Below are positions 1 to 19,975 of a stretch of 64,000 nt of DNA, one piece after another. Origin of the DNA: an uncultured Anaerolineae bacterium (GTDB taxonomy: Bacteria; Chloroflexota; Anaerolineae; J036; Brachytrichaceae); assembly GCA_937959265.1 (NCBI GenBank), contig CALGMA010000009.1, positions 1-64,000 of the forward strand. The letters are read 5' to 3'. Position 1 is the first letter of the stretch, and the number at the start of each line of letters is the position of its first letter. The notes beneath the pieces were generated by a model. That model was not told the DNA's origin, did no database searches, and saw only the letters and a list, made by a program, of their open reading frames with translations. Position numbers and translations under genes: made by a program.

Positions 1-666
1 AGCGGCCATTGCTTTGGATTTGCGCTGGGTCTGGACACATTGGGCTGCATCGGCTTGGGCATGATGATCGCCGGTGGGTTGGGGATGGCGGGCGTGGTGT
101 CCTACCAGCTCATGCCGGATCAGATCAAGGCCGATGCCGGACGCGCGATTGAGACGCTGGTCACCGACCTGACGCGAGGGCCGGCCTCGATCAACACCAC
201 GGCAGGGGCCGGGCCGCAGATTGACCCCGCGCCGGCGCTGGGCTACCCGCTGGAGTCGGTGCGGAGCGCAGGCACGAGCGAGGTGTATCCGCTGGCGGGT
301 GAGAGCGACGCGATCCAGTTGACTACGCCGTTGGGCGGCAGTCAGACATTGCAGATCGGCGGGCCGTTGCAGGCCACATCCAGCACTCAAAAGCATCATC
401 CTTGGCCAAAATACTTGGGCGGACCTGAAGAGCAAACGCTCTTGGAGATGCCAACGGAGACTCATCAAAATTTTCATCGCGAGTTGGATAGAATTTATTC
501 GCGCTATGAGGGATCTATAAAGTGGGATGAGCTGCCGCGCAAGGAGCAGTTGGACCTTATCAAGACACTACGCGACTTTACTCGCAAGTTCGACAAGGAG
601 AACAAGACTAAGACAAACAAGGCTTTACAGCGTGCTTTGAAGGAAGCAGGAGAATCCGGTCGATGA
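1..666 (+). CDS. RHS repeat protein C-terminal end (5' truncated by window) with putative HHxxPKxLGG nuclease-type toxin domain
   Basis: Frame 1 opens with SGHCFGF, the continuation of the RHS core ending DPSGHCF seen at 2010-2035 and 3465-3490; C-terminus KHHPWPKYLGGPEEQTLLEMPTETHQNFHRELD resembles His-rich nuclease toxin tips. Confidence 0.7.
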   Translation, partial: SGHCFGFALGLDTLGCIGLGMMIAGGLGMAGVVSYQLMPDQIKADAGRAIETLVTDLTRGPASINTTAGAGPQIDPAPALGYPLESVRSAGTSEVYPLAGESDAIQLTTPLGGSQTLQIGGPLQATSSTQKHHPWPKYLGGPEEQTLLEMPTETHQNFHRELDRIYSRYEGSIKWDELPRKEQLDLIKTLRDFTRKFDKENKTKTNKALQRALKEAGESGR

Positions 667-1535
667 AAGAGATAGCCAGAATACAGTTTCGTGGCGAAGA
701 TACCGATTTGGCAGCCTACTGGAATAAAGTTCATCCAGAGATGCCGATTCGATATGGGATCGTCGTGCTTCCCTATGCATCGGCCATCTATGACGAACTG
801 AGACAGACGTTCACTCGTTTTGCTGCTCATACGCCAGTAGAGTGGTCTGAGCGGATAACAGTGGAATATACACCAACAGAAATCCGGGCGTGTGAGATTC
901 TGGAACTTGTCATTATCGGCTATGCTGGTGACGGCGGCAATACTTACGCTCCTGTTTATAGAGAAGTAGTAACTTGCCCCTCCTGCAAAATTACTGAGTA
1001 TCAGCAAGTGCAAGACCTCTTCCTCAACACCTCAAACTTCGAATCCATCCCGGATTCTCATCAACGCAGAAGGTGCGACTGGTATGAAACACGCTTTGGT
1101 GAAGTTGTCGTCTCGCAACGATTGCACGACTTGTTCAAATCGAAAGGCATTCCTGGGGTTGTCTTTCGTCCAATTCGCGATTACGCGAAGCGAGGCGGTG
1201 AATTGTCCGCGGTTTTTCAACTCGTTGTTGAAGCGGAGATCGGTCCATTCATTGAGCCAACACGTTTAGAACGCGAAGGATACTGCGCCGAATGCAATCA
1301 ATACCGGTCTATTCTTCGAGCTGAGTTGAGAGGGTCGAAAGGCAGCGAACTCTATCTTCCACGTTCGAACTTCCATGGTCAACCGATCATGAGAACAAGT
1401 GAAAGATTAGGCCGTCGTCCTTTGGCATCGACGACGCTAATTGTCAGCCAGAACCTTTATCGATTGATGCGAGTAGAGTCTCTGCGTGGCTTTCGTGTGC
1501 AACCGGCGCATCTCGTCGATACGACCGCATCATGA
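663..1535 (+). CDS. Putative immunity protein with two CXXC motifs (double-CXXC type)
   Basis: ATGA overlap with the toxin ORF stop; contains CPSC and CAEC motifs; position directly after an RHS tip. Confidence 0.6.
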   Translation: MKEIARIQFRGEDTDLAAYWNKVHPEMPIRYGIVVLPYASAIYDELRQTFTRFAAHTPVEWSERITVEYTPTEIRACEILELVIIGYAGDGGNTYAPVYREVVTCPSCKITEYQQVQDLFLNTSNFESIPDSHQRRRCDWYETRFGEVVVSQRLHDLFKSKGIPGVVFRPIRDYAKRGGELSAVFQLVVEAEIGPFIEPTRLEREGYCAECNQYRSILRAELRGSKGSELYLPRSNFHGQPIMRTSERLGRRPLASTTLIVSQNLYRLMRVESLRGFRVQPAHLVDTTAS

Positions 1536-1724
1536 CTTCAGGTGTGCGTCTAAAGTTCTGGAGTTCGAGTTTAGACACGAACAGCAGTTGAGCCAGCAAG
1601 GCCAGCGTCCACCTGCGCGATAACTGAAGCATGTTGTGGCCGCACTTCGGTCCATGTCTTCATGCAGCGACCTAGGCAGCGGGGGTGCGCTGGATTCATG
1701 GCGACCACCCCTGCCTTCGCGGGG

Positions 1725-2603
1725 GCAAGCCTGGGCAGCGCTAGCCTGGCGACGAACTCAAGCGGGCAGGTGGTGAGCCAACTGCGCTACAAGCCGTATG
1801 GCGAAGTGCGCTGGCAGAGCGGGGCGATGCCGACCAACCGGCGCTTCACCGGGCACCGGAGCGAGGACGGCTTCGGGCTGATTGACATGCGCGCCCGTTA
1901 CTACGACCCGCTGATCGGGCGGTTCATCAGTGCGGACAGCATCGTGCAAGCGCCGGGCGACCCGCAAACGCTCAACCGCTACGCCTATACACGCAACAAC
2001 CCGCTGAAGTATGTTGATCCGAGCGGGCATTGCTTCATCTTTGCTGGCATAGACACGGTTGCTTGCATTGGCCTGTGGATGCTAATTGTTGGAGGCGGCA
2101 CAGCTGCAGCTGTAGGTGCAGCCTATACACCGGAAGGACAGAAACTAGCGCGCAATGCAGAGAAGTCCTTCTATTCGCTCGCTGTTGCTGTTGATGATGT
2201 AGTCCAATCAGCTAAAGTCAACGTAGCCTTCTCTGCTGCCACCACATTTGCTCGAATACAGCCTTCTCATTTGGCGATTCGGAATCTGACACCTGATGAG
2301 GAAAAGCACATACGCCGCATCGAAGAAGCGGAGACCTTCTCGGATGATCATCCGGACATTGAAGCAGAAGTGGCAAAGCGTTTGCAGGAAGAGAAACCAC
2401 AGCCGGGAAAGGATCACATCAATGAAGCCCAGGAGAAGATTAAACAACTAGATAGAAGCATTGGCACACTCAAGCGCGCGCTCCGTCATTTGAACGAGTC
2501 CGACAAACAGCGTGTCGAGGAAGCGATTGAGAAAGCCAAGGAAATCATTGACACGCTCAATCGTAGACTTAGCCCATTGGTTCAGGAGACCAAGAACCGA
2601 TGA
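1725..2603 (+). CDS. RHS core C-terminal fragment with alpha-helical variable C-terminal domain
   Basis: LGSASLATNSSGQVVSQLRYKPYGEVRW...GLIDMRARYYDPLIGRFISADSIVQAP...LNRYAYTRNNPLKYVDPSGHCF is the canonical RHS-associated core; followed by a charged helical tip. No upstream RHS repeats in frame (ORF track begins 1662). Confidence 0.75.
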   Translation, partial: ASLGSASLATNSSGQVVSQLRYKPYGEVRWQSGAMPTNRRFTGHRSEDGFGLIDMRARYYDPLIGRFISADSIVQAPGDPQTLNRYAYTRNNPLKYVDPSGHCFIFAGIDTVACIGLWMLIVGGGTAAAVGAAYTPEGQKLARNAEKSFYSLAVAVDDVVQSAKVNVAFSAATTFARIQPSHLAIRNLTPDEEKHIRRIEEAETFSDDHPDIEAEVAKRLQEEKPQPGKDHINEAQEKIKQLDRSIGTLKRALRHLNESDKQRVEEAIEKAKEIIDTLNRRLSPLVQETKNR

Positions 2604-3214
2604 CAACGCCTACCGAGCATTCTAAGGATGTCTTGAATCACCTGAAGTCACTTATCGCGGAGCGTGAGCGGACAATTGCACGAGGTGAGCAGCCGGGCTA
2701 TCCACAAGAGATTGGCCGGTTGATTCACCAGTTATCCGAGCTTCGAAATGGAGCAGCACGAGATTACTTCCTAGAGTTGCTAGCAGGCAAGCATGTGCTT
2801 GATGATGAAGTGTTACTTCACCTGATTGAAGGGCTTGGATTCCACTGGACGGACTTCGTCGCTCCAGTCCCGTTGTACGAAGCTTTGCTAAAGGATTGCA
2901 CGCGCGACGAACAATTGCGGGCTACTTGTGCGGCGGTGTTGGGATCCTCAATGGAATCGCAGAGCAGCATTCCAGCATTGGTCGAGGTTGTGGGACGGGC
3001 AGATGATTCGGACTACGTTCGTGAGGCGGCTATGCATGCCCTCGTGCGAATCGGTGGCCTTGACCCTATCCCTGTGGAGATTCAGAGAGTGCTCTCGCCA
3101 GATGATTATTCGTTGTTCGCCACAGTAAGCAGCTACAAAGACCTAAGAAGGTTAGTCGGGCAGGTTCGTGAGCGCTACAAAGGTGACCTGCCTATATCGT
3201 TTAGGCGAGAGTAG
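2600..3214 (+). CDS. Putative immunity protein, HEAT-repeat-like
   Basis: ATGA overlap with the preceding RHS tip; helical repeat-like text (RATCAAVLGSS...VREAAMHALVRIGGLDP). Confidence 0.55.
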   Translation: MTTPTEHSKDVLNHLKSLIAERERTIARGEQPGYPQEIGRLIHQLSELRNGAARDYFLELLAGKHVLDDEVLLHLIEGLGFHWTDFVAPVPLYEALLKDCTRDEQLRATCAAVLGSSMESQSSIPALVEVVGRADDSDYVREAAMHALVRIGGLDPIPVEIQRVLSPDDYSLFATVSSYKDLRRLVGQVRERYKGDLPISFRRE

Positions 3215-3285
3215 ATACCACACCAGACCGTCCCACTGATTGGCGTCCTGCCCTGAGCTTGCCGAAGGGTCACTGGCCAACGGCT

Positions 3286-3754
3286 GGAAGGCAGTGTTGG
3301 CCTCTATGGCTATCCCCTGCGGGGACCTCCGCTGCGCTCCGGCAACGCGCGGATGTATTCGCCGCTGCTGGCGCGCTTCATCAGCGCCGATACGATCGTG
3401 CAAGCGCCAAGCGACCCGCAAACGCTCAACCGCTACGCCTATACACGCAACAACCCGCTGAAGTATGTTGATCCAAGCGGGCATTGCTTTGGATTTGCGC
3501 TGGGTCTGGACACATTGGGCTGCATTGGCTTGGGCATAATGATCGCCGGTGGGTTGGGGATGGCGGGCGTGGTGTCCTACCATCTCATGCCGGATCAGAT
3601 CAAGGCCGATGCCGGACGCGCGATTGAGACGCTGGTCACCGACCTGACGCGAGGGCCGGCCTCGATCAACACCACGGCGGGGGCCGGGCCGCAGAGTGAC
3701 GCAGTGCCGGCGCTGGGCTACCCACTGGTTAATTGCGTTGCTGGCAACGCATAG
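3286..3754 (+). pseudogene. RHS core C-terminal remnant (orphan tip)
   Basis: ARMYSPLLARFISADTIVQAPSDPQTLNRYAYTRNNPLKYVDPSGHCFGFALGLDTLGCIGLG...; no intact upstream RHS; ends soon after the shared segment (GYPLVNCVAGNA*). Confidence 0.7.
3477..3727 (+). repeat. Near-identical copy of window positions 1-251 (direct repeat)
   Basis: agcggNcattgctttggatttgcgctgggtctggacacattgggctgcat... in both places with few substitutions; divergence begins after GYPL. Confidence 0.9.
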
Positions 3755-3981
3755 TGAGTCTGCCGCTAGGTGTCTTGTTGATAGCAATATTGATAGATCT
3801 ATTTGTGCCGCCCTGCCAAACACTAAACTGTCCAGATGATAGGATATGGAGTGGGGTGGCGTTGTGGATATCCACCATTGCAGGAGGCTGTAGCCTTCAG
3901 GCACTTGCTTGGCTGACAAAGCGTTTTGCTTGTAAATTGCGGAATTGTCGCTTCCTCTCGCACGTGCGAATGTAGACGCTT

Positions 3982-4125
3982 ATACGCTGCACTCGCAATC
4001 GAGCTAACGCCGTTGATCCGAGTGGGCACTGCTTCAAGAAAATGAACATAATACCACCAAGCTGTATGATTCATACATGTTCTGCGCGCCAAGTATTACA
4101 CGGCGTATACTTTGCAACGGTTGGT
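3982..4125 (+). pseudogene. Degenerate RHS core remnant
   Basis: Translation TLIRCTRNRANAVDPSGHCFKK aligns to NRYAYTRNNPLKYVDPSGHCF. Confidence 0.55.
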
Positions 4126-4178
4126 TGGTTTCAGTATGTTCTCTGGTAGAAATTGAGGGTGTCATAGGGTTAGATGTC

Positions 4179-6473
4179 ATGACCGATCGGATGCAACCGC
4201 GACTCGAAACAAAATTACACCGCCCGGCATTGCCGGACGATTTTGTCCCCCGTCCGCGACTGCTAAACCGGCTGAATCGCGGTTCGACGTGCAAGCTTAT
4301 CCTCGTGTCGGCACCGGCCGGTTTTGGCAAAAGCACCTTGATCGCGTGGTGGACATCCACGCTGCGCATCCCCACGGGATGGGTATCGCTGGATGAGGCG
4401 GACAACGACCTCGCCAGCTTCGTCAACTATTTCGTCGGCGCTGTCGAGCGTCACTTCCCCGATGCGTGCGCGAACACACAATCCATCTTGACTGGGCCAC
4501 AGGCGTTGAACGGCGATATGCTGGCCACGACCCTGATCAATGACCTAGTTCAGCTCGGTCAGCCGTTTGTCGTGGTGCTGGATGATTACAACGTCATCAC
4601 TAACGCTGCGGTGCATGCGTTGGTCATGCGCCTGATTCGGCATCAGCCGCCGGGATTGCGCTTGGTGATCGTCTCACGCACCGACCCGCCGTTGTCATTG
4701 GCGCGCTTGCGGGCTTCGAACATGCTTGAACTGCGCGGGGCCGATTTGCGCTTTGACCGCGATGAGATGCGGCGATTTCTGGCCGAGGATGGGTTGGCGT
4801 CGTTGGACGACGCGGCGCTCGACGCGCTCGAGGCCTGCATGGAAGGTTGGGCAGCGGGGTTGCGCCTGGCTGCCCTGTCACTCCAAAACACGCGCGCCAC
4901 AGCCGCGATACTGTCGGGCGTCGAGGGTGCCAGCCAGCACACCATGTCTTATCTACTGGATGAAGTATTGCGGCAGCAGACCGACGATGTGCAAACCTTT
5001 TTGCTGTGCACCAGCATCCTGGATCGTTTTTGCGCCGAGTTGTGCGAAGCGGTCGCGAGCGAGAGCGCATCGGGACTGAGCGGCCATGCCTTTACTGAGC
5101 TGCTGATGCAGGCCAACCTGTTCGTCGAGCCCTTGGACAGCCAAAGGCGCTGGTTCCGCTATCACCCTCTCTTTCAACAGTTGCTGCGCCACAAACTGGC
5201 CGAACGGCTCAGCGCGTCAGCCATCGCCGCGCTGCACCGGCGCGCGGCCGCATGGTGCGTGAACGGCGGCGAGTTGGATGAGGCGCTCGGCCATTACCTA
5301 AGTGCAGGCGACGCCACCGCCGCTGCCGTCGCGCTTGAAAACCATGTACCCGCGTTATTGAACGCCGAGGCGTTTCATGTCGTCGCGAGTGCGCTCGAGC
5401 GTTTGCCACAAGAGGTGATTTTGACGCGCGCCGGCCTGTTAGCAGCGAAGGCATTCGTGCTGATTGTGCGTGGGAAGGACGCCGCCTTTCAACAGACTCT
5501 GGGCATGTTAGAGGATCGGCTGGCTGATCCGGAATTCCAAGTGATCTATCCCCAGGCGGAAGCGCGTCAAAAAATCTGCGGGCAGGCCACCTTTCACAGG
5601 ATGTGGGATGCCTTCAAGCGCCAAGACTATGAGCGTTGCATCCAGTTCTCCCAACAGGCATTGACCATCCTCCCAGCATCCGAAACGTACCTGCGTGGAT
5701 CAATCATGATGGCTATGGGATTGTCAATGTGCGAGCTTGGTCGCTCTGAAGCGTGGGAGAGATACCTGCTGGCGCAAATACAACAGTATGACGCTACGGA
5801 CGGCTTCCTGGCGCGCTGCTATATCTCACTGTGCTTGACGTACCAGCGCGCGGCCCGATATGCCGAGCTAAAGCTGGCGGCGCAGCGTTTGTTGGAGATC
5901 GCGCAACGAGCTGGCCTTCTGGTCAGTCAGGCATTTTCGCACTACCTGCTTGGCATGGCGCTTTACCCGTTGAATGAGATAGAGGCAGCCATCCAACATC
6001 TCACGTTTGTGCACGAACGGCGCTACGCCCTCACGGTTGTGGTTGTGCGGCCCGCCGTCTCGTTGCTCATCCGGTCATATCTGGCAGCCGGCCGTCTGGA
6101 AGATGCAATATTTACGTACGAACAACTGGCGAAATACGATGTGGATATGGCCGGCGCAGTAACCTCCGATACGCAGGCCGTGGGTGCACAATTGACCCGA
6201 TTGCAAGGTGACAAGCGTCATAGGTCGAATGGACTACGTGTGCGCTCCTCGGCCACACCAGCGAACGGCATCGCGCCCGAAGATCTCCTCACCCGGCGCG
6301 AGACCGAAATCCTGCGCTTGCTTGACCAGCAACTGAGCAACAAAGAGCTTGCGCAGCGGCTGTTCATCACGCCCGAGACAGCCCAACGCCACGTCAGCAA
6401 CCTGATGCTAAAACTCGACGTGCATAACCGGCGACATGCCGTGCGCAAAGCCAAGAGCCTGGGCATCCTGTAG
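4179..6473 (+). CDS. LuxR family transcriptional regulator, MalT-like (STAND ATPase + LuxR HTH)
   Basis: Walker A-like APAGFGKSTLIAWW, LVIVSRTDPPLSLARLRA, C-terminal LTRRETEILRLLDQQLSNKELAQRLFITPETAQRHVSNLMLKL; ATG at 4179 preferred over ORF start 4077. Confidence 0.9.
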   Translation: MTDRMQPRLETKLHRPALPDDFVPRPRLLNRLNRGSTCKLILVSAPAGFGKSTLIAWWTSTLRIPTGWVSLDEADNDLASFVNYFVGAVERHFPDACANTQSILTGPQALNGDMLATTLINDLVQLGQPFVVVLDDYNVITNAAVHALVMRLIRHQPPGLRLVIVSRTDPPLSLARLRASNMLELRGADLRFDRDEMRRFLAEDGLASLDDAALDALEACMEGWAAGLRLAALSLQNTRATAAILSGVEGASQHTMSYLLDEVLRQQTDDVQTFLLCTSILDRFCAELCEAVASESASGLSGHAFTELLMQANLFVEPLDSQRRWFRYHPLFQQLLRHKLAERLSASAIAALHRRAAAWCVNGGELDEALGHYLSAGDATAAAVALENHVPALLNAEAFHVVASALERLPQEVILTRAGLLAAKAFVLIVRGKDAAFQQTLGMLEDRLADPEFQVIYPQAEARQKICGQATFHRMWDAFKRQDYERCIQFSQQALTILPASETYLRGSIMMAMGLSMCELGRSEAWERYLLAQIQQYDATDGFLARCYISLCLTYQRAARYAELKLAAQRLLEIAQRAGLLVSQAFSHYLLGMALYPLNEIEAAIQHLTFVHERRYALTVVVVRPAVSLLIRSYLAAGRLEDAIFTYEQLAKYDVDMAGAVTSDTQAVGAQLTRLQGDKRHRSNGLRVRSSATPANGIAPEDLLTRRETEILRLLDQQLSNKELAQRLFITPETAQRHVSNLMLKLDVHNRRHAVRKAKSLGIL

Positions 6474-6494
6474 CCTGCATAGGGTGCCTCGGGT

Positions 6495-6851
6495 GTGCCA
6501 ACTTTCTACACGATATCTACATGGTCGGGACGACCTCAAGTCACTACACTTCCATCCGTGGATACCGGATTAGATTGTCCAACTCACAGATTGACGTTGC
6601 ATGATCCGGCCGTGTACCGGATTTGCGTCCAGGGCGTCCTGGAGCCGAGTTGGTCGGAGCTGATGCATGGCATGGCAATTTCGTCGCTCGTCGCGCGCGA
6701 TGAGAACCAGCGCGAACTGCATCACACCCAACTCTTAGGCACATTGGCGGATCAAGCTGCGCTGATCGGCTTGATCAACACACTATATTCGCTGGGGCTG
6801 CCGCTGGTGTCAGTTGCGTGCCTCCAGGAATCAACGTGCAAGGAGACGTGA
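6495..6851 (+). CDS. Conserved hypothetical protein, small
   Basis: YRICVQGVLEPSWSELMHGMAI...LGTLADQAALIGLINTLYSLGLPLVSVACL resembles small proteins I associate with MalT-like regulators. Confidence 0.55.
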   Translation: MPTFYTISTWSGRPQVTTLPSVDTGLDCPTHRLTLHDPAVYRICVQGVLEPSWSELMHGMAISSLVARDENQRELHHTQLLGTLADQAALIGLINTLYSLGLPLVSVACLQESTCKET

Positions 6852-6852
6852 C

Positions 6853-7830
6853 ATGAGTGATGAGCCGATTACACGCATGCCGCAACATCCTGCGTCGCCT
6901 CCTCATGCAGGCATGGTGTGGATACCAGGCGGCACGTTTCAAATGGGATCGAACGATTTCTATCCCGAAGAGAGGCCCGTGCATCGCGTGAGCGTGGATG
7001 GCTTCTGGATGGACGCGCACCCCGTCACAGTGGCCGAGTTCGCCCGCTTCGTTGCGGCCACCGGCTACGTTACGGTGGCCGAACGCCCGCTCAACCCGGC
7101 TGACTATCCTGACGCCGATCCCGCCCTGCTCGTGCCCGGCGGCCTAGTGTTCAAGCGGACGCGCGGGCCGGTCAACCTGGACGACTACCGGCAATGGTGG
7201 GCCTACGTGCCCGGCGCGAATTGGCGCTTGCCCTACGGCCCCAAGAGCGATCCGACCGGTCGCGACAACCACCCGGTCACGCAAGTGAGCTACGAGGATG
7301 CCGAGGCATACGCCAAGTGGGCCGGTAAGGCATTGCCAACTGAGGCGGAGTGGGAATTCGCCGCGCGCGGCGGTCTGGACGGTGCAATCTTCACGTGGGG
7401 CAACGAGCACTTCCCGGGCGGCAAAGCGATGGCCAACACCTGGCAGGGGGAATTCCCGTGGCAGAACCTGCGGCTGGATGGCTATTTTGGCACGTCGCCT
7501 GTCGGGTCGTTCCCGCCAAATGGCTACGGGCTGTACGACATGGCGGGCAATGTGTGGGAATGGACATGTGACTGGTATGTGCCGCAACACACTGAAAAAC
7601 CGGCCAAATCGTGCTGCACGCCAAGCAACCCGCGCGTGGCTTTGTCTGTGCCCGATGCGAGCTACGACCTGACGCAGCGGAACGCGCGCATCCCGTCCAA
7701 GGTGCTCAAGGGCGGGTCGCACCTATGCGCGCCGAACTACTGCTTCCGATATCGCCCGGCAGCGCGCTCACCGGGGATGATTGACACGGCCACCTGCCAC
7801 ATCGGCTTCCGCTGCATCGTGCGCCCTTGA
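6853..7830 (+). CDS. Formylglycine-generating enzyme family protein (SUMF1-like)
   Basis: GMVWIPGGTFQMGSNDFYPEERPVHRVSVDGFWMDAHPVTVAEFARFV...GGLDGAIFTWGNE...YGLYDMAGNVWEWTCDWY...KVLKGGSHLC...CFRYRPAAR...HIGFRC. Confidence 0.93.
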   Translation: MSDEPITRMPQHPASPPHAGMVWIPGGTFQMGSNDFYPEERPVHRVSVDGFWMDAHPVTVAEFARFVAATGYVTVAERPLNPADYPDADPALLVPGGLVFKRTRGPVNLDDYRQWWAYVPGANWRLPYGPKSDPTGRDNHPVTQVSYEDAEAYAKWAGKALPTEAEWEFAARGGLDGAIFTWGNEHFPGGKAMANTWQGEFPWQNLRLDGYFGTSPVGSFPPNGYGLYDMAGNVWEWTCDWYVPQHTEKPAKSCCTPSNPRVALSVPDASYDLTQRNARIPSKVLKGGSHLCAPNYCFRYRPAARSPGMIDTATCHIGFRCIVRP

Positions 7831-7947
7831 TCGTGCATCGCGCTTAGAGCGTAGGCCGACCATGTACAAATCATGTAGAAACCGTGCAAAGTGATTGACC
7901 GGTGCGCCACATTCCCAACAATGGTTTTGGTATTGGAGGTAACACGT

Positions 7948-10416
7948 ATGGCAAAGAAAACTGATGCAAGGAAAGCTGGCAAGACCAGCGACCGTAAGAA
8001 CGGCGGGGTGACGTCGGCGGCGCAGCCGAAGAGCACCGCCGCAATGTGGGCGGAACACAACGCGCGCCTGCCGCGCACCGTTCTGCCCATCCCAGATGTC
8101 CCGCCGGTTGGGCTGACGACCTATGACGCCAAAGATCCGGACACGAATTATCCGCCCATCGTGCCGTTGCGTCCGCCCGAAGGCGCCCCCAACGTGCTGA
8201 TCATTCTGCTCGATGACGTCGGCTTTGGCGCATCGTCCGCCTTCGGCGGCCCGTGCCAGACGCCGAACTTCGAGAAGCTGGCCGCCAACGGGCTCAAGTA
8301 CAACCGCTTTCACACCACCGCGCTGTGCGCGCCCACCCGCCAGGCGCTCCTGACCGGCCGCAATCATCATTCGGCCGGCATGGGCGCGATCACCGAGATG
8401 GCGACCTCGGCGCCGGGCAACAACTCTGTGCTGCCCAACACCATCTCGCCGATTGCGCGCACGCTGAAGCTCAACGGCTACTCGACCGCGCAGTTCGGCA
8501 AGTGCCATGAGGTGCCGGTCTGGCAGACCAGCCCTATGGGCCCGTTCGACGCCTGGCCCACCGGTGGCAGCGGCTTCGAGTACTTCTATGGCTTCATCGG
8601 CGGCGAGACCAGTCAGTGGTACCCGGCTCTCTACGAGGGCACGACGCCGATTGAACCAGAAAAGACACCCGAAGAGGGCTATCACCTCACCGAGGACATG
8701 ACGACCAAGGCGATCAAGTGGGTTCGACAGCAAAAGGCGCTGATGCCCGATAAGCCGTTCTTCATCTACTTCGCGCCGGGCGCCACACATGCGCCGCATC
8801 ACGTGCCCAAGGAATGGGCTGACAAATACAAGGGCCAGTTCGACCAAGGTTGGGACAAACTGCGCGAGGAGACATTTGCGCGGCAGAAGCAACTAGGCGT
8901 CATCCCGCAGGACTGTATGCTCACGGCGCGCCATGCGGAGATTCCGGCCTGGGACAGCGTGCCGGCGGAGATGAAGCCTGTCCTCGCCCGCCAGATGGAG
9001 GTGTATGCCGGCTTCCTCGAGCACACCGACTATCAGATCGGGCGGCTGATCGAGGCGCTGAAAGACCTCGAAGTTCTCGACGACACGCTGATCTTCTTGA
9101 TCATCGGCGACAACGGCGCATCGGCCGAGGGATCGCTGCAAGGCACTTACAACGAGATGGCGACGCTCACGGGCTTCGCCCACCTGGAGACGCCGGAATT
9201 TCTCATATCCAAACTCGACGAATTCGGCGGGGTCGAGGCTCACAACCACTACGCGGTAGGCTGGGCGCATGCGATGAACACGCCATACCAGTGGACCAAG
9301 CAAGTGGCCTCGCACTTCGGCGGCACCCGCAACGGCACGATCGTGCACTGGCCTAAGGGCATCAAGGCCAAGGGCGAGATCCGCAGCCAGTTCCATCACG
9401 TGATTGACGTCGTGCCCACTATCCTGGAAGCGGCGGGGTTGCCTCAGCCCTTGTTCGTCAACGGGGTGCAGCAAAAGCCCATCGAAGGCGTCAGCATGGT
9501 GTACTCGTTTGACGATGCCAACGCGCCCGAACGACACGAGACGCAATACTTCGAGATGGTGGGCAACCGTGGCATCTACCACAAAGGCTGGACGGCGGTG
9601 ACCAAGCACCGCACGCCGTGGGAGACTGGCACCGTCGAGCTGACGGCCTTCGATGACGATGTGTGGGAGCTATACGACACGAACACCGACTGGAGCCAGG
9701 CAAAGGATTTGGCGAAGGAGTATCCACAAAAACTGCATGAACTCCAGCGGCTATGGTTGATCGAAGCGGTCAAGTACAACGTGCTGCCGCTGGACGATCG
9801 CTTTGCCGAGCGCGGGAATGCCGACCTCGCCGGCCGGCCACAGTTGGTCAAGGGCAACCGGCAGTTGCTGTTCGGCGGCATGGGGCGGTTGACCGAGAAC
9901 TCGATCATCAACTACAAGAACAAGTCACACGCTGTCACAGCCGAGGTGGTCGTGCCCAAGTCCGGCGCAGAAGGTGTCATCGTCGCCGTGGGCGGAAGTA
10001 TCGGCGGCTGGAGCCTGTATGCCAAGAACGGCGTGCTGAAGTACTGCTACAACTTCTACGGCTTTGACCGCTACACGATCGAAGGCACATCGAAGATTCC
10101 ATCGGGGACGCATCAGGTGCGGATGGAGTTCGACTACGACGGCGGCGGCGTGGCCAAAGGCGGCACAGTCGCGCTCTTCGTTGACGGCGAGATGTGTGGC
10201 AAGGGCCGCGTGGAGCAAACCGAGCCGATAGTCTTCTCCTCCGACGAGACGCTCGACGTTGGCGATGAATTCGGTTCGCCGGTCACCCCCGACTATCCGG
10301 CCGATAAGAAGTTCAGTGGCGAGGTGAACTGGGTTCAGATTGATGTAGACGTCAAAGACGAAGATCACTTCATCTCGCCGGAGGAGCGGTATCGGGTGGC
10401 AATGGCCTTGCAATAG
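7948..10416 (+). CDS. Type I (formylglycine-dependent) arylsulfatase
   Basis: APNVLIILLDDVGFG and CAPTRQALLTGR (CxPxR sulfatase motif); GGAGGT Shine-Dalgarno at 7935; ATG at 7948. Confidence 0.94.
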   Translation: MAKKTDARKAGKTSDRKNGGVTSAAQPKSTAAMWAEHNARLPRTVLPIPDVPPVGLTTYDAKDPDTNYPPIVPLRPPEGAPNVLIILLDDVGFGASSAFGGPCQTPNFEKLAANGLKYNRFHTTALCAPTRQALLTGRNHHSAGMGAITEMATSAPGNNSVLPNTISPIARTLKLNGYSTAQFGKCHEVPVWQTSPMGPFDAWPTGGSGFEYFYGFIGGETSQWYPALYEGTTPIEPEKTPEEGYHLTEDMTTKAIKWVRQQKALMPDKPFFIYFAPGATHAPHHVPKEWADKYKGQFDQGWDKLREETFARQKQLGVIPQDCMLTARHAEIPAWDSVPAEMKPVLARQMEVYAGFLEHTDYQIGRLIEALKDLEVLDDTLIFLIIGDNGASAEGSLQGTYNEMATLTGFAHLETPEFLISKLDEFGGVEAHNHYAVGWAHAMNTPYQWTKQVASHFGGTRNGTIVHWPKGIKAKGEIRSQFHHVIDVVPTILEAAGLPQPLFVNGVQQKPIEGVSMVYSFDDANAPERHETQYFEMVGNRGIYHKGWTAVTKHRTPWETGTVELTAFDDDVWELYDTNTDWSQAKDLAKEYPQKLHELQRLWLIEAVKYNVLPLDDRFAERGNADLAGRPQLVKGNRQLLFGGMGRLTENSIINYKNKSHAVTAEVVVPKSGAEGVIVAVGGSIGGWSLYAKNGVLKYCYNFYGFDRYTIEGTSKIPSGTHQVRMEFDYDGGGVAKGGTVALFVDGEMCGKGRVEQTEPIVFSSDETLDVGDEFGSPVTPDYPADKKFSGEVNWVQIDVDVKDEDHFISPEERYRVAMALQ

Positions 10417-10587
10417 CTTTTTGCATCTCCATCGTCGACCCGATCCCGGGCGGTGCCGTCGCGGCGGCAGCGGCTCACTACGTGCTCAATCCGGCACTGC
10501 CGGAAGTCGAGACGCCAACGCACGCGACGGCACGCCAAAACGCGTGAACATCCCACTTGGACCACAAACAGGGAAAGAGTCATTTTA

Positions 10588-11030
10588 GAGGTTGATACGA
10601 TAGTTCCACTTGATTACGCCGTGATCGAATTTCCGGGCAGCAAGTTCAAAGGCGAGATTGCCCCGGAACTTTACCGGCTGGTGGCGGACGGTCTGATTCG
10701 CATCGTTGACCTGGTTTCCTCTCGAAGGACAAAGTGACAAATTCACCGTCGTGGAATTGAACGACTTGAGCGATGAAGAGTGCAGCCAATTCGCGCCTCT
10801 GATTGAGAGGCTTGACCGGCTGTTCACGGCCGAGGACATTGCCAATTTGGCAGCATCTGTCCTCGACAACACATCGGCGCTGGTCATGTTGTGGCAGAAC
10901 GTGTGGACGGAGCGAATTCGCCACGCGGTCACCAACGCGAATGGCCGGTTGATCGCTCACGTGCGCGTGCCTGCCGAGGTGTTGTCAGGAAGTGATGGCC
11001 GAAGTTGCGACCGTGGGCGCGCAAGTGTAA
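10588..11030 (+). pseudogene. DUF6325-like protein, two frameshifts
   Basis: LDYAVIEFPGSKFKGEIAPELYRLVADGLIRIVDLV (frame 1), then FTVVELNDLSDEECSQFAPLIERLDRLFTAEDIANLAAS...LIAHVRVPAEVL (frame 2), then QEVMAEVATVGAQV* (third frame) ending TAA 11028-11030. Confidence 0.7.
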
Positions 11031-11039
11031 CGCGGCGTT

Positions 11040-11370
11040 CAAAAGGAAGACAGCATGTGAAGAAGATCCATCATCGTTGCGCCGCGCCGCTGGTGTGCGC
11101 AGCCGCCACGACCACAGTACGACCACAGTGGTGGCCGGCCCCGGGACGGCAGTTTCTGGCGCCATCTCCCGGCCGCCAACAGCAGATGGACGCGGTCGTG
11201 CAACAAGCCACCCCCCGGCAGGCAGCGCCAATGCCCAGCGGGGCGCTCAGCGACGAAGCGCTCGCCCAGTTGCAGAAGTTGGCCGACTTGCAAAGGGCGG
11301 GTGTGATTACGCAACAAGAATTCGTCGCTAAGAAGAAGTCGCTAAGAAGAAGCAAATTCTGGGTCTGTGA
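11040..11370 (+). pseudogene. SHOCT-domain protein, frameshifted
   Basis: STTTVVAGPGTAVSGAISRP in one frame, QQQMDAVVQQATPRQAAPMPSGALSDEALAQLQKLADLQRAGVITQQEFVAKKK in another, AKKKQILGL* in a third after a tandem duplication. Confidence 0.7.
11325..11352 (+). repeat. 14-bp perfect tandem duplication TCGCTAAGAAGAAG x2
   Basis: Read directly: 11325-11338 and 11339-11352; shifts the reading frame at the SHOCT C-terminus. Confidence 0.95.
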
Positions 11371-11485
11371 TTCAGTTGGGCTAGAGGGTTAGATCAGTCG
11401 CGGTCATAAATGGGCCGCGCTGAAAGAACAGGACAGACCGAGCTTCGTGCAATTTCCAATTGGTTTGTTATCAGGTCAGGCGGTG

Positions 11486-12217
11486 ATGAATGACGCCCAA
11501 CCCGCGGGACGGACATTGCGGCGCGCTGCCAATCTCACGGCAGCGGTGGGCATCGCCCATGCTGTGCTGTTCATCCTGTCCTATGTTCTGGCTATGGGCA
11601 TACCCGGCGCGAAGGCGACGGATGCGGAACTCGTGACGTTCTACACCGGCGGCGACCGGCAGCGCATCATTCTAATCGGGTTGTATCTCATGCCGTTCGC
11701 CGGCATCGCCTTTTTGTGGTTCATCGTCGCGCTGCGCATGTGGATTGCGCATTCCGCACGGCGACTAGATGCGTTGTTTTCGAACGTGCAACTGGTTAGC
11801 GGCATCATCTACGTTGCTTTGTTCCTGACGGCGGCTGCGGCGTTGTCGGCCACGGCGGCCAGCATCGAGTTTGCAGGATCGGTCATGGATCCCGATGTGA
11901 CGCGCCAGTTCCTGCAATTCCACAACACGATGGTATTGGTGCTGGCGATGCGCATGGCGGCCATCTTCGTCTTCACAACCTCGAACATCGGCCGCAGCAC
12001 GGGCGCGCTGCCGCGCTGGTTTATCTATGCCGGTTTTGCGGTTGGGCTGTTTCTGTTGCTGAGCGCCAGCTTCAGCCCGGCGCTAGTTCTGGTGTTCCCC
12101 GTCTGGATGATGACCCTGTGCGTGATCCTGTTGTGGCAGGCGCGGCGCGTGCTGGCGGATACTGTCTTGCCGTTGCGTCCGATGCCGGCTGACGCTACGT
12201 CACACATCGAGATGTGA
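11486..12217 (+). CDS. Membrane protein of unknown function
   Basis: Several hydrophobic segments (HAVLFILSYVLAMGIPG, LIGLYLMPFAGIAFLWFIVALRMWI, IIYVALFLTAAAALSATAA...); internal ATG at 11486. Confidence 0.65.
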   Translation: MNDAQPAGRTLRRAANLTAAVGIAHAVLFILSYVLAMGIPGAKATDAELVTFYTGGDRQRIILIGLYLMPFAGIAFLWFIVALRMWIAHSARRLDALFSNVQLVSGIIYVALFLTAAAALSATAASIEFAGSVMDPDVTRQFLQFHNTMVLVLAMRMAAIFVFTTSNIGRSTGALPRWFIYAGFAVGLFLLLSASFSPALVLVFPVWMMTLCVILLWQARRVLADTVLPLRPMPADATSHIEM

Positions 12218-12256
12218 GGCTATAACTAAAGCGATGACTGTGGAGCAAAAGGAGCC

Positions 12257-13165
12257 ATGAAAGAGATTTTGACCGTTTTATCCAACGTCGCGGTGCTGAC
12301 CTTCGTGGTATCGAGCATGCTAGCGATGGGTACGTCGCTGACCGTGCCGCAGATCACGTCCACGCTCAAGAACGGCAAATTGATCGCCTGGGCGCTGATC
12401 GCCAACTTCGTTCTGGTGCCGCTGGCGGCGTTGCTCGTCACGGCCATCATTCCGCTTCAGGAGAGCCAGAAGATCGCGCTGATCATCCTGGGTTGCGCGG
12501 CTGGCGCGCCGTTCCTACCCAAACTGGCGCAGTTTGCCAAGGGCAATGTGCCGTTCGCCGTCGGCCTGATGGTGCTCTTGATGGTAGTCACCATCATTTA
12601 CATGCCCGTCGTCATGCCGCTGCTCTTGTCGGGCGTGTCGGTGAACCCGCTGTCCATCGCCTCGTCGCTGATCATCACCATGTTGTTGCCGCTGGGAGTC
12701 GGCTTGTTCATCAAGGCGCGCTACGCCGAGCCGGCGGCACACCTCAACCACACCATGGGGCAGATCAGCAACGTAGCGCTCATGCTGGTGCTGGTGACGA
12801 CGGTGCTGGCGAACTTTCAAGACCTGATCGGCGTGATCGGCACCGGCGGCATCCTTGCTGGACTGCTATTTCTGATCGCATCTCTGGCCATCGGCTTTCT
12901 GGTCGGGCGCTTTGCAGGTGGGCCGGACGTGATGGGTGTGATGGGGTTGGGGACAGGCCAGCGCAACATCTCGGCGGCCATGCTGGTTGCGACATCGAAC
13001 TTCAGCGACCCGAACGTGCTGGTGATGATCATGGTGGTGTCTACGCTGGGCTTGTTCGTGCTCTTCCCGGTTGCAGGTGAATTGGGCAAGCGGGCCAAAC
13101 GCGCAACAGGAGATGCGCAAATGACTGCGCCGGACGCGACGCCGGAATCCACAGCGACTGTGTGA
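12257..13165 (+). CDS. Bile acid:sodium symporter (BASS) family transporter
   Basis: VSSMLAMGTSLTVPQI..., GCAAGAPFLPKLAQFAKGN, GLGTGQRNISAAMLVAT are family-like signatures. Confidence 0.8.
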   Translation: MKEILTVLSNVAVLTFVVSSMLAMGTSLTVPQITSTLKNGKLIAWALIANFVLVPLAALLVTAIIPLQESQKIALIILGCAAGAPFLPKLAQFAKGNVPFAVGLMVLLMVVTIIYMPVVMPLLLSGVSVNPLSIASSLIITMLLPLGVGLFIKARYAEPAAHLNHTMGQISNVALMLVLVTTVLANFQDLIGVIGTGGILAGLLFLIASLAIGFLVGRFAGGPDVMGVMGLGTGQRNISAAMLVATSNFSDPNVLVMIMVVSTLGLFVLFPVAGELGKRAKRATGDAQMTAPDATPESTATV

Positions 13166-13186
13166 CTGTGCAGGCAGCCGATTACA

Positions 13187-13282
13187 GTAGTCGGCATCCC
13201 CGGTTCGCTGGTCGGCCTGCAAGCTGAAGACCCGACCATCGCCGAGTTGCTCAAGCTACTTGGCTACGCCACCGGGGAGTGA
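13187..13282 (+). pseudogene. Arylsulfatase internal fragment
   Basis: VVGIPGSLVGLQAEDPTIAELLKLLGYATGE*; matches the conserved IPGSxxGLQPEDPTIAELLKPLGYATGQFGK segment of many arylsulfatases. Confidence 0.75.
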
Positions 13283-13349
13283 GGTCGCCCCAATCCGCCA
13301 CCTGCTCTGAGCCGCCTCGGCATGGGGTGGGAATCCAGATAAGGACGCA

Positions 13350-13697
13350 GTGTATCTGAACGTTGTGCCGAAGGGGAACGACGGGACGACGGTTTGCCAG
13401 CTGACGGTCGAGGATGTGCCGGTGGACGGGTTCTGGTCGGTGTGTGTCTATAACACTGAGGGCTTTGTGAAAAGAACGCGAAGGACGCTTACGTGGTCAA
13501 CAACCTCACCGCGAAGACGAACGATGACGGGTCAATCTCTATCCAGCCAGTTCGGCGGCTGTGATGAGAAAGTGCCCAACTGTCTGCCGATCACGCCCGG
13601 CTGGAGCTACATGGTGCGACTGTGTCGCCCGCGCGAAGAGATTCTCGATGGCACGCGGAAATTCCCCGAGGCTCAGGCGGCAAGGCCGATAGGTTGA
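13350..13697 (+). pseudogene. DUF1254/DUF1214 C-terminal fragment with compensating frameshifts
   Basis: YLNVVPKGNDGTTVCQLTVEDVPVDGFWSVCVYN... + EKNAKDAYVVNNLTAKTNDDGSISIQ (shifted frame) + FGGCDEKVPNCLPITPGWSYMVRLCRPREEILDGTRKFPEAQ. Confidence 0.75.
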
Positions 13698-13720
13698 AGT
13701 GCGGTCACCAAGCACACGCC

Positions 13721-15550
13721 ATGCAACAAACCGCAACAACCACGTCGGCGGCGAACGCGAAGCAGCTGCGTATGCCAACCTTTCTAATTGGCATTCGGGG
13801 CGCAACGGACTTGCCCAGGGAGATCATCGCCGGCGTGACGCTGGCTGCGCTGATGATCCCGCTCAACATCGGCTACGCCCAAGTGGCGGGCTTGCCGCCC
13901 ATTGTCGGCCTGTATGCCGCCATCGTGCCGATGATCGCCTTCGCGTTGCTCAGCACGTCGCGCAACCTTGTGGCCAGCCCCGACGCGCCCATCGCCGCGC
14001 TGATCGGTGGGCTGCTAGCGAGCCTCGCTGCGCCGGAAGATCCGCGCTATGTGCAACTTGCGTTTGGCCTGGCGTTGTTGTGCGCGCTGATTTTCGTTTT
14101 GTTCTGGTTGTTCAGGCTGGGCTTCCTCGCTAACTTTCTCTCGCGCGCTGTGCTCATCGGCTTCATTACGGGTCTGGGGATCGAAGTGTTCACCAGCCAG
14201 TTGAAGAAGATCATGGGTGTGTCGCTCGAAGCCGAGGGCTACTTCCGCGAGGTCGTCGAACTGGTTCGCAAAATTCCTGAAGCGAATCTGTATGCGGCCG
14301 CCATCGGCGTGGGCAGCATCGTCATCATCCGCCTGCTCAAGCGCTACGCGCCCAAACTGCCCGGCGCGCTGATCGCGCTCGTGCTGATGACGGCGGTCGT
14401 CGCCATCTTCAATCTGGATGCGCGTGGCGTGAGTGTGCTGGGCGCAGTGCCCTCCGGCCTGCCGACGCTGGTGTGGCCGCAACTTGCGCTCAGCGACTAC
14501 GTCAGACTCTTGCCCGGCGCGCTTGCGATCTGCGGCGTGACGCTGGCTGAGGGCCTTCTGATCGGGCGAAAGTATGCCCAAAAGTACAGCGACAAACTCG
14601 ATGCAGACCAGGAAATGTTCGCTTTTGGCGCGGCCAACGCCGCGGCCGGGTTGACCGGCGCGTTCGTAATCGGGTCAAGCGCGTCGCGCACAGCGGCCAT
14701 GGATGGCGCAGGCGCGCGCAGCCAGATTCCCAGCCTCGTCGCTGCGGGCGTCGTGGCGATCCTGCTGCTGTTCTTCTCGCCGCTGCTGGCGCTGCTGCCG
14801 AACGCGGCGCTGGGCGGCATCGTCGCCAACGCCGTGCTCAGCTTGATCGAGGTGGACGAGTTGCGCAAGCTGTTTCGCATGCGCCGCTCCGAATTCTGGA
14901 TTGCCGTCGTGTGTCTTTTGAGCGTGCTTGTACTGGGCGCGCTGCCGGCGGTGATCATTGCCTTCCTACTCAGCACCATCGCCGTCGTTGGCCGCGCATC
15001 CACGCCGCAGACGGCGGTTATGGCTGTGCTGCCGGATGGCCGAGGCTACTACGCTCACGTGGACGAGGGCGCCCATCAGATCGTCACTCAGCCCGGCCTG
15101 ATCATCTATCGCTTCGGCTCGTCACTGTATTTTGCCAACGCCAACACCTTTACCGATGAGGCGCAGCGGCTGGTCGAGGAGGCTACGGCCAAGGGCGACG
15201 ATGAGCGTCCCTCGATCCCCATTTCGAGTGCCTCAGAAGGGGGCCGAGGGATCGGGGAGGTGCGCTGGTTCGTGCTGGATGCCGAGGCGATCAACGACAT
15301 TGACACGACCGGCGCCGAGGCGTTGCGCACCGTAGCAGAGGTCTTGAAGAAGCGGGGCGTGACCCTTGCCCTCTCGCGCGCCAACCCGCGCGTGCCCGGC
15401 CTGCTCAAGGCTTACGACCTGGATGAGGCCATCCCGGAATTGCTTCGCTTCCAAACCAACCGCGATGCTGTGGCAGCGTTCGACAAGGAACGGGCCGCCA
15501 ACGCCAATCCTGACGCGACAAGGGTTGCGGCCCTGGATACCGATGAGTAA
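13721..15550 (+). CDS. SulP family anion transporter with STAS domain
   Basis: DLPREIIAGVTLAALMIPLNIGYAQVAGLPPIVGLYAAIVPMIAFALLSTSRNLVASPDAPIAAL; C-terminal STAS IYRFGSSLYFANANTF...DTTGAEALRTVAEVLKKRGVTLALSRANPRV. Confidence 0.92.
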   Translation: MQQTATTTSAANAKQLRMPTFLIGIRGATDLPREIIAGVTLAALMIPLNIGYAQVAGLPPIVGLYAAIVPMIAFALLSTSRNLVASPDAPIAALIGGLLASLAAPEDPRYVQLAFGLALLCALIFVLFWLFRLGFLANFLSRAVLIGFITGLGIEVFTSQLKKIMGVSLEAEGYFREVVELVRKIPEANLYAAAIGVGSIVIIRLLKRYAPKLPGALIALVLMTAVVAIFNLDARGVSVLGAVPSGLPTLVWPQLALSDYVRLLPGALAICGVTLAEGLLIGRKYAQKYSDKLDADQEMFAFGAANAAAGLTGAFVIGSSASRTAAMDGAGARSQIPSLVAAGVVAILLLFFSPLLALLPNAALGGIVANAVLSLIEVDELRKLFRMRRSEFWIAVVCLLSVLVLGALPAVIIAFLLSTIAVVGRASTPQTAVMAVLPDGRGYYAHVDEGAHQIVTQPGLIIYRFGSSLYFANANTFTDEAQRLVEEATAKGDDERPSIPISSASEGGRGIGEVRWFVLDAEAINDIDTTGAEALRTVAEVLKKRGVTLALSRANPRVPGLLKAYDLDEAIPELLRFQTNRDAVAAFDKERAANANPDATRVAALDTDE

Positions 15551-15619
15551 AAGAGCGATGCGATGACCAAACAACAGCGCAGACAAACCAAGTCAAGCAA
15601 CAGCAAAAAGGAGAAAGCA

Positions 15620-16489
15620 ATGCCTGATGTGAACGCACACAAGCAGTCTGCCATCACACCAGCCGAGGCTCGCGCCATCGCCAAAGAAACCTACACCTAC
15701 GGCTTCCTGCTGGTAGACAACTACCGCGTCATGCACTCGTTCTTCGTGGATCGTGGCGGCAAGGAGTTCAAGGCGCCGTGGAATCAGATTCACAACGAGG
15801 CGCGCATCTTCACGTCGGACGACCGAACGATAGGCAAGCACACGTTCAGCCGGGAGCGAATCGGCACCCGGTACGTCATGGCCGGGGTCTGGACGCTGGT
15901 CAACCCTGCCGATCAGCAGGACATCAAAAAGGTTCGCGACCTCCAAGACGCGATCAGTGTCGATCAGAAGAGTATGGGCAAGTTTGAGGTGCCGAACTGG
16001 GATCCGGCGAGCCAGAAGACGGTTCGTGACGCGCTGATCGCGCTTGGCGCAACGCTCCCAGACACGCGCTGCATGTTCGGCAAAAACAACGACGTGGAAC
16101 TGGTGCGACATCTCGTCGGCAGCGCGATGGCGGGGGGCGACAACCCCGAGAAGGGCGCGCTTTACCTGAACGTCACGCCGCTCGAGAACGACGGCAAGAC
16201 GGTGTACTGCTTGACGGTCAAGGATGTGCCGGTGGACGAGTTCTGGTCAGTGTGCGTCTATAACGCGGACGGCGACTACCAAAAGAACAAGCACGACGCC
16301 TACTCGGGCAACAGCATTACGGGGAAGAAGAACGCGGACGGCTCGGTAACGATTCAGTTTGGCGGGTGGGATGGCAAGACGCCCAATTGCGTGCCGATCG
16401 TGCGGGCTGGAATTACATGGTGCGCCTTTATCGCCGGCGCGGGCCGGTCCTCGGCGACACATGGATCTTCCCCAAGGCGCAGCCAGTGA
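15620..16489 (+). pseudogene. DUF1254/DUF1214 family protein, probably internally deleted and C-terminally frameshifted
   Basis: EARAIAKETYTYGFLLVDNYRVMHSFF...GKFEVPNWDPASQKTVRDALIALGATLPDTRCMFG...YLNVTPLENDGKTVYCLTVKDVPVDEFWSVCVYNADGDYQKN; frame +1 near 16402 restores GWNYMVRLYRRRGPVLGDTWIFPKAQPVS*. Confidence 0.7.
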
Positions 16490-16518
16490 GTTGAGCACGC
16501 CGATGCCGATGAAAAACC

Positions 16519-18309
16519 ATGCGTGAATCATTACCCGCCACGGCGCAGAACGCGTTCAAACGTGCTGCTCGATATGTGCCGGTGCTGACCTGGGCGCGCC
16601 GCTACCAGCGCGAGTGGCTGACCAGCGACCTCATCGCGGGTGTGACGGTGTGGGGCGTGATGACGCCTTCGGCCATGGCCTATGCCCAACTGGCCGGCCT
16701 GCCCGCCCAGCACGGCTTATATGCCGCCATGATGTCGTTGATCGCCTACGCCATCTTCGGCATGTCACGCCACGTCAAGGTCATCACCAGCTCGACCGTG
16801 GCTGTGATGTCGGCCAGCGTGCTGGCGTCGTTCGCAGTCACCGACCCTGCCAGGTATCTGCTCCTGTCGTCGGCGTTGGCGCTGGCCGTCGGCATTGGGC
16901 TGGTGGCCGCGGGTATGATCAAGCTTGGCTTCATCGCCGACTTCCTGTCCAAGCCGATCATCGCCGGTTTCATCTTTGGCGTCGCCATCACCATCATCAT
17001 CGGCCAATTGCCGAAGGTGTTCGGTCTACCCGGCGGCAGCGGCACGATCTTCGAACAGATCACCCAGTTCATTACTCGCTTGCCGCAGACTAACCTGTTC
17101 TCGCTTGGCATCAGCATCGGCGCGATCGTCGTGATGACAGTCATGCGCAGACGCTTCCCGCGCATCCCGGCCGGGCTGGTGGTGCTCGTGTTGTCCATCG
17201 CCGCCGTGGGGCTGTTCAACCTCGACCAGCGCGGCGTGAGCATCGTCGGCAGCGTACCGCAGGGGCTGCCGACGATCCGGCTGCCGCTCGTGTCGTTGAG
17301 AGATCTGGCCGGCATCGTCACTGGCGCGGCGGGCATCATCTTCCTGGCCGCAGGCGAATCGCTCGGCACGGCACGCGCCTACGCGACGCAACATCGCGAG
17401 GCGCTGGACGCCGACCAGGAGTTGATCGCGCTCGGCGCGTCGAACATCGCCAGCGGCCTGGCGCAGGGGTTCGCGGTGGACGTCAGCCTGTCCACCACGG
17501 CCACCTCAGAGAATGCCGGCGCACGCACCCAGTTGTCGGGTTTGGTGACGGCCGGGCTGGTGGCCATCACGCTGCTGTTCCTCGCGCCGCTGTTCGCCAG
17601 CCTGCCGAACGCCGTGCTGGGCGTGCTGGTCATCCTGTCGGTGGTAAGTCTGCTCGACGTGCAACGCCTGCTGGCCATCTATCGCGCCCGTCGCGCCGAC
17701 TTCCTGTTGGCCATCACTGCGCTGGCTGGTGTGTTGCTTTCGGACGTATTGACCGGTCTGTTGATCGCGGTGTTGTTGGCGTTAGTGCAGGTGTTGTATC
17801 GCGCCAGCCGGCCGTATCTGGCCCAGTTGGGTGAAATTCCCGGTTCGCCAGGGGCCTATGGCGATCTCGCCCGCGCGCCGAACAACCAACAAGTGCCTGG
17901 CTTGTTGATCCTGCGGCTGGATGCGCCGCTGTATTACTTCAACGCCAACCAGGCGACTAAACAGATTCGCGATCTGGTAGCAGGCAGCAAGGATACCGTG
18001 CGGGCGGTGCTGCTCGACCTGGGTGCCACGGCTGACCTGGACATCACCAGCGCCGACGCGTTGCAGGAGTTGATGCGCGACATGCGTGAAGAAAACATCC
18101 GGGTGATGTTCGTGCACCTGCGCGGCGGCGTGCGCGAGCGGCTGGCGCGCATGGGCAAGATGGCGGACTTTGGCGCGGCCAACGTGTATCCCAGCATTGA
18201 CGTCGCTGTGCGCGACTTCAAAGGCGCGTGGATCACGCCGGATGAAGCGCCCGTGCCGGTGGCAGAAGCGACACCGGATCGCGATGCCGGAATCGCTCAT
18301 CAACGCTAA
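16519..18309 (+). CDS. SulP family anion transporter with STAS domain (second copy)
   Basis: DLIAGVTVWGVMTPSAMAYAQLAGLPAQHGLYAAMMSLIAYAIFGMSRHVKVITSSTVAVMSAS; STAS-like C-terminus. Confidence 0.92.
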   Translation: MRESLPATAQNAFKRAARYVPVLTWARRYQREWLTSDLIAGVTVWGVMTPSAMAYAQLAGLPAQHGLYAAMMSLIAYAIFGMSRHVKVITSSTVAVMSASVLASFAVTDPARYLLLSSALALAVGIGLVAAGMIKLGFIADFLSKPIIAGFIFGVAITIIIGQLPKVFGLPGGSGTIFEQITQFITRLPQTNLFSLGISIGAIVVMTVMRRRFPRIPAGLVVLVLSIAAVGLFNLDQRGVSIVGSVPQGLPTIRLPLVSLRDLAGIVTGAAGIIFLAAGESLGTARAYATQHREALDADQELIALGASNIASGLAQGFAVDVSLSTTATSENAGARTQLSGLVTAGLVAITLLFLAPLFASLPNAVLGVLVILSVVSLLDVQRLLAIYRARRADFLLAITALAGVLLSDVLTGLLIAVLLALVQVLYRASRPYLAQLGEIPGSPGAYGDLARAPNNQQVPGLLILRLDAPLYYFNANQATKQIRDLVAGSKDTVRAVLLDLGATADLDITSADALQELMRDMREENIRVMFVHLRGGVRERLARMGKMADFGAANVYPSIDVAVRDFKGAWITPDEAPVPVAEATPDRDAGIAHQR

Positions 18310-18312
18310 ACT

Positions 18313-19672: not shown

Positions 19673-19792
19673 TCCTGTGAGACGCGCCTCATAGTTCGGC
19701 GCGCCAGGTCAGCGGCACCTGGCCGACAGATCGGCGGTTCATTCCGCTGTTCGCTACGCTCACGCGGGACGTAGCCGCCGGGCCGGCGGCTG

Positions 19793-19975
19793 CAAGCCAA
19801 CGTTGGACTCTATGACTATCCCCTGCGGAGACCTCCGCTGCGCTCCGGTAACGCGCGCTACTACTCGCCGCTGCTGGGGCGTTTCATCTCGCCGGACAGC
19901 ATCGTGCCGGAGCCGGAGGACCGGCGGGCGCTCAACCATTCGACTATCTTCTCAACAAAGATCCTCAATTGAGCG
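19793..19975 (+). pseudogene. RHS core remnant
   Basis: LYDYPLRRPPLRSGNARYYSPLLGRFISPDSIVPEPEDRRALN, then frame loss. Confidence 0.7.

What the first reader, a model, noticed from the sequence alone, without database searches (positions are those of the whole stretch)
1..4125. RHS C-terminal tip array with a ~250 bp duplicated switch-like segment
Four successive RHS core ends (1-, 1725-, 3286-, 3982-) lie head to tail without full-length RHS genes between them. Positions 1-251 and 3477-3727 are nearly identical and then diverge abruptly after GYPL, and the LNRYAYTRNNPLKYVDPSGHCF core DNA is also shared with the 1965-2035 copy. This is what is expected if new toxin tips recombine into a common core and push older tips downstream as orphan cassettes.
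Basis: partly seen in the sequence, partly recalled or inferred. Interest (0 to 1): 0.72.

Follow-up and report, generated by a model that had tools for sequence, protein, structure and literature searches.

The report
Orphan toxin-tip array downstream of Rhs gene
The first 4 kb of this window is the tail of a bacterial Rhs toxin gene followed by a row of displaced, older toxin tips with their likely antidote genes; this way of swapping weapons is already known from gut bacteria and is here seen, with clean before-and-after comparisons, in hot-spring Chloroflexota (Candidatus Roseilinea).

Summary
Window position 1 is a contig start; 1-253 and 3476-3728 are 96% identical, a 64-nt exact core repeat links 1957-2020 and 3411-3474, and a 24-nt relic lies at 4012. 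The missing full-length Rhs gene is held: contig C16 of the same genome ends inside a 1497-codon open Rhs frame, and synteny with a complete congener (G022) places C16's end and the window in one locus. Order: main core, linker, tip 1 + immunity; core end, tip 2 + HEAT immunity; toxin-less core/linker relic; 24-nt relic. Core and linker are 64-68% G+C, tips and immunities 48-53%. Congeners (Candidatus Roseilinea) carry like arrays with up to ten core ends. At one orthologous locus two genomes are 96% identical over 7.5 kb up to exactly DPxGH, then carry unrelated tips. A tip active in some genomes is an orphan in another; whole cassettes recur at 99-100% at other loci and in other species. Corrections: GYPL is not the tip boundary (it lies near 373), the repeat is a pre-toxin linker, and no switching was seen. 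New member of a known kind (Rhs C-terminal displacement).

The parts
1..372 (+). End of the main Rhs core (SGHCF) and hydrophobic pre-toxin linker; contig start, upstream part on contig C16
   Evidence: G+C 66.9%
373..666 (+). Tip 1, putative toxin domain with motif HHPWPKYLGGPEEQT
   Evidence: G+C 48.0%
663..1535 (+). Putative immunity gene 1, start codon overlaps the stop of tip 1
1728..2036 (+). Orphan core end 2 (LGSASL...DPSGHCF)
   Evidence: Rhs_assc_core
2037..2603 (+). Linker and tip 2, putative orphan toxin domain
   Evidence: G+C 49.9%
2600..3214 (+). HEAT-repeat protein, putative immunity gene 2, start codon overlaps the stop of tip 2
   Evidence: PF13646 E 2.9e-8
3275..3475 (+). 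Orphan core end 3, damaged, with short inserts
3476..3728 (+). Second copy of linker 1, cut after GYPL; frame stops at 3754 without a toxin
3733..3975 (+). Small frame with two hydrophobic stretches in low-G+C sequence; of doubtful coding status
   Evidence: no family
4012..4035 (+). 24-nt relic of a core end
19775..19937 (+). Damaged core end at the far side of the locus, followed by the conserved right flank

Best explanation
This is the 3' end of an Rhs polymorphic-toxin locus. The main Rhs protein (its upstream part on contig C16) most likely carries tip 1 behind a hydrophobic linker, followed by the immunity gene of tip 1. Downstream lie displaced older tips, each behind a stump of Rhs core and, while intact, followed by its own immunity gene. 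New tips arrive by homologous recombination in the shared core end; the incumbent tip is pushed downstream as an orphan and then decays. Shown: the anatomy; locus continuity by synteny; and, in congeners, a tip exchange whose left edge is exactly the end of the core, active and orphan positions of one tip, and near-identical cassettes at different loci and in different species. Inferred: that the window's own tips were displaced in this way, that tip 1 is a nuclease, that the small genes are immunity genes, and that orphans could be re-fused to the main gene.
For: Rhs frame of 1497 codons open at the end of C16, same strand; synteny C16 flank / array / window from 19.66 kb in complete G022. 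Toxin-like tip and following gene overlap by ATGA twice. G+C contrast core 64-68% vs tips and immunities 48-53%. Tip exchange ending at DPxGH between G017/G023 and G022. Same tip active in G017, G019, G023 and orphan in G022. Cassettes 99.6-100% identical between loci and species against an 82.6% flank. Relatives of immunity 1 next to Rhs core ends, and of tip 2 plus immunity 2 ahead of a core end, in other Chloroflexota.
Against: The C16/C9 junction itself is unsequenced. Neither window tip was found in active position in another genome. In G022 an insertion-sequence-like stretch (transposase-like frames read by eye) borders the resumed homology, so a deletion may have shaped that example. 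No function was tested.
Confidence: 0.9

Rival explanations
1. Decay of several once full-length Rhs genes: the core ends are stumps left after tandem Rhs genes lost their 5' parts by deletion, not displaced tips.
For: G022 array D begins with a core stump beside the conserved left flank and has no full-length gene there; many stumps carry stops or inserts.
Against: Stumps mostly begin within about 100 codons of the core end, tip and following gene are kept, and an orthologous pair shows a tip exchange at the core end. No partly degraded 5' Rhs frames were met in the window array.
Confidence: 0.05
2. Programmed switch: the duplicated segment serves on-off or alternative fusion of tips to the main core, as a reversible phase-variation device.
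For: Direct repeats that could recombine: 64-nt exact core repeat and the 253-nt, 96% repeat. Orphan re-fusion was shown experimentally in Salmonella (PMC3967940).
Against: The 253-nt copy leads to no toxin (stop at 3754); no recombinase was identified among the frames scanned; no alternative junction was seen; direct repeats would delete, not invert.
Confidence: 0.04
3. Assembly artefact: repeats in a fragmented metagenome-derived genome were wrongly joined into an array.
For: The window starts at a contig end where the repeat lies; 52 contigs and 5% estimated contamination; contigs of G017, G019 and G020 also end in or near such arrays.
Against: The single-contig G022 and the 5-contig G023 hold arrays of the same build.
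Confidence: 0.03

Closest known systems
rhs C-terminal displacement in Enterobacteriaceae (Jackson et al. 2009, PMC2935791)
   Same: Full-length rhs gene followed by an array of dissociated tips behind core fragments, low-G+C tips, displacement of an incumbent tip at orthologous loci
   Different: Other phylum; core stumps in one array differ in sequence here, whereas Jackson et al. report identical cores within a locus; here a hydrophobic linker is shared as well
Orphan rhs toxin of Salmonella Typhimurium LT2 (Koskiniemi et al. 2014, PMC3967940)
   Same: Orphan tip plus immunity gene downstream of the main gene, with a long core repeat between them
   Different: Re-fusion of the orphan was shown by experiment there; not tested here
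Orphan cdiA-CT/cdiI arrays (Poole et al. 2011, PMC3150448)
   Same: Arrays of tip plus immunity modules behind a constant marker motif, cassettes exchanged between strains, IS elements among orphans
   Different: CdiA and the VENN motif there; Rhs and DPxGH here
Polymorphic toxin systems (Zhang et al. 2012, PMC3482391)
   Same: Toxin plus immunity cassettes that replace the 3' end of a constant gene; Chloroflexi are listed among carriers
   Different: A general survey; the passages read do not describe these loci

Membership tests
Rhs polymorphic toxin locus | Rhs/YD repeats in a long frame | tested here: met
   C16 frame: PF05593 E 2.8e-30, TIGR01643 E 2.3e-22; the frame is open at the contig end
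Rhs polymorphic toxin locus | Rhs-associated core domain ending in DPxG | tested here: met
   TIGR03696 at 1788-2030 and 3344-3484
Rhs polymorphic toxin locus | C-terminal toxin with a following immunity gene | tested here: inconclusive
   Position, overlap and recurrence fit; activity untested
Orphan tip array by C-terminal displacement | Full-length main gene upstream of core-end plus tip fragments | tested here: met
   By synteny for the window; directly in G022 arrays A and B
Orphan tip array by C-terminal displacement | Different tips at orthologous loci with the break at the core end | tested here: met
   G017 and G023 vs G022
Orphan tip array by C-terminal displacement | Same tip active in one genome and orphan in another | tested here: met
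   HELFHAF tip; not found for the window's own tips
Orphan tip array by C-terminal displacement | Circular intermediate of recombination | not testable with these tools
   Proposed in PMC2935791
HNH/LHH nuclease toxin (tip 1) | Match to a curated nuclease family | tested here: not met
   No Pfam or NCBIfam nuclease match; only an HHxWPxxLGG motif shared with other long frames
Imm11 immunity family (immunity 1) | Score above the Pfam cut-off | tested here: not met
   15.3 bits against 22.1

The most novel reading that the evidence does not exclude
Orphan core stumps in Candidatus Roseilinea form a recombining pool of their own, marked by short in-frame inserts that main genes lack, so cassettes move mainly from orphan to orphan across loci and species and only rarely enter the main gene.
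Probability: 0.2. Interest if true: 0.5.

Novelty: new member of a known kind. Interest (0 to 1): 0.35.

Why it matters
It extends Rhs tip displacement, worked out in Enterobacteriaceae, to hot-spring Chloroflexota with comparisons at orthologous loci, and shows near-identical orphan cassettes in species whose flanks differ by about 17%. It also warns that contigs of such metagenome-derived genomes tend to break at Rhs arrays, so orphan tips can look like isolated fragments. Two tip and immunity pairs without a family name are added.

Tried and rejected
A PDB search of tip 1 gave only chance matches. AlphaFold models of tip 1 and immunity 1 were too poor (pLDDT 59.5 and 33.6), so no fold search was made. 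The idea that the small inserts in core stumps are genome-wide repeats was rejected for the stretches held: the longer motifs were found only in or beside Rhs core stumps. GYPL as tip boundary was rejected. Genes at 4-10 kb gave no synteny test, having no close ortholog in congeners; the flank beyond 19.66 kb did. A library search for Roseilinea together with toxin found no paper.

Full report
What was checked. The window is bases 1-64000 of contig C9 of a 4.0-Mb, 52-contig genome, so position 1 is a contig start. Core ends were confirmed with the Rhs_assc_core model at 1788-2030 (full length) and 3344-3484 (C-terminal half), with a 24-nt relic at 4012-4035 that shuffled sequence never gave, and a further damaged one at 19775-19937.

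Where the full-length gene is. The same genome holds one strong Rhs-repeat frame, at the end of contig C16: 1497 codons, open at the contig end, with RHS repeats. Instead I used synteny: in G022, a single-contig congener, the left flank of the C16 gene, an Rhs array, and then the window from 19.66 to 62.5 kb follow in order. C16's end and C9's start therefore most likely belong to one locus, broken where a long exact repeat would defeat an assembler. Contigs of G017, G019 and G020 also end in or near such arrays.

Anatomy. In order: linker and tip 1 (to 666), immunity 1 (663-1535, ATGA overlap), core end 2 with linker and tip 2 (1728-2603), HEAT immunity 2 (2600-3214, ATGA overlap), core end 3 with a second copy of linker 1 that ends after GYPL and stops at 3754 without a toxin, and the 24-nt relic. 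Core and linker are 64-68% G+C, tips and immunities 48-53%, the window beyond 20 kb 62%. In G022 arrays B and C the linker runs on to about position 330, and G019 matches to about 363-369; I place the tip boundary near 373 for that reason and the low G+C beyond it. GYPL is not the boundary; copy 3 is a cut relic.

Evidence for displacement. The resumed stretch is the remains of the old tip's downstream gene, so the old cassette once stood there. In G022 transposase-like frames (read by eye) lie just before it, so a deletion may have taken part. That old tip (HELFHAF motif) is the tip of the main gene in G017, G019 and G023 (the G023 frame is open for only 705 aa) and an orphan in G022 arrays A and D, whose two copies are 99.6% identical over 1964 nt. 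Orphan cassettes shared by G017 and G022 are 99.8-100% identical in an array whose flank is 82.6% identical, which points to recent exchange between species.

The window's own tips. Tip 1 has no curated family; its motif HHxWPxxLGGPxEQT recurs in long open frames of three other genomes of the class. Relatives of immunity 1 are directly followed by, or overlap, Rhs core-end frames in three further loci. Tip 2 has a relative in a Lake Baikal Chloroflexi locus, followed by a weak relative of immunity 2 and a core end. Nuclease activity of tip 1 and the immunity functions are inferences.

What is known. Jackson et al. 2009 (PMC2935791) describe this process: new C-termini displace old ones by recombination in the core and leave arrays of dissociated tips. 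Koskiniemi et al. 2014 (PMC3967940) report evidence for re-fusion of an orphan in Salmonella, and Poole et al. 2011 (PMC3150448) describe cdi orphan arrays. The finding is a new member of a known kind; the phylum, the shared hydrophobic linker and the unequal core stumps are its particulars.

Limits. Displacement is shown in congeners and inferred for the window's own tips. The gap between C16 and C9 is unsequenced. The count of short inserts in core stumps (23 of 41 orphans, 0 of 6 main genes, Fisher p 0.013; counted by eye) rests on related sequences, so the p-value is only indicative.

Noticed in passing
window 3218-3340 and 19740-19860; L062, L029, L030, L063, L065: Short in-frame inserts in orphan core stumps (YPLRGPPLRSG, SHGDSLRS, IPPFATLTRDVAA, PALSLPKG): 23 of 41 orphans by eye, none of 6 main genes.
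   Followed up: partly
window 4077-19268: A LuxR/MalT-like regulator, sulfatase-modifying-type frame, sulfatase, SBF and two SulP transporters lie between Rhs core ends at 3.3 and 19.8 kb; in G022 the collinear right flank follows the array directly.
   Followed up: partly
G022 arrays A, C, D (L062, L030, L063): Whole cassettes are shared at 97.8-100% between distant loci of one chromosome.
   Followed up: partly
G000 C5:181148-181216 and C48:18665-18820: Two further weak core-end-like matches elsewhere in the window's genome.
   Followed up: no
L030 7816-8490 (-): One frame of the G022 array C locus, whose tail is the orphan that array keeps behind DPRGH-like or damaged core sequence or a copied cassette, matches the LHH nuclease family (PF14411, E 2.6e-11); not placed further.
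   Followed up: no
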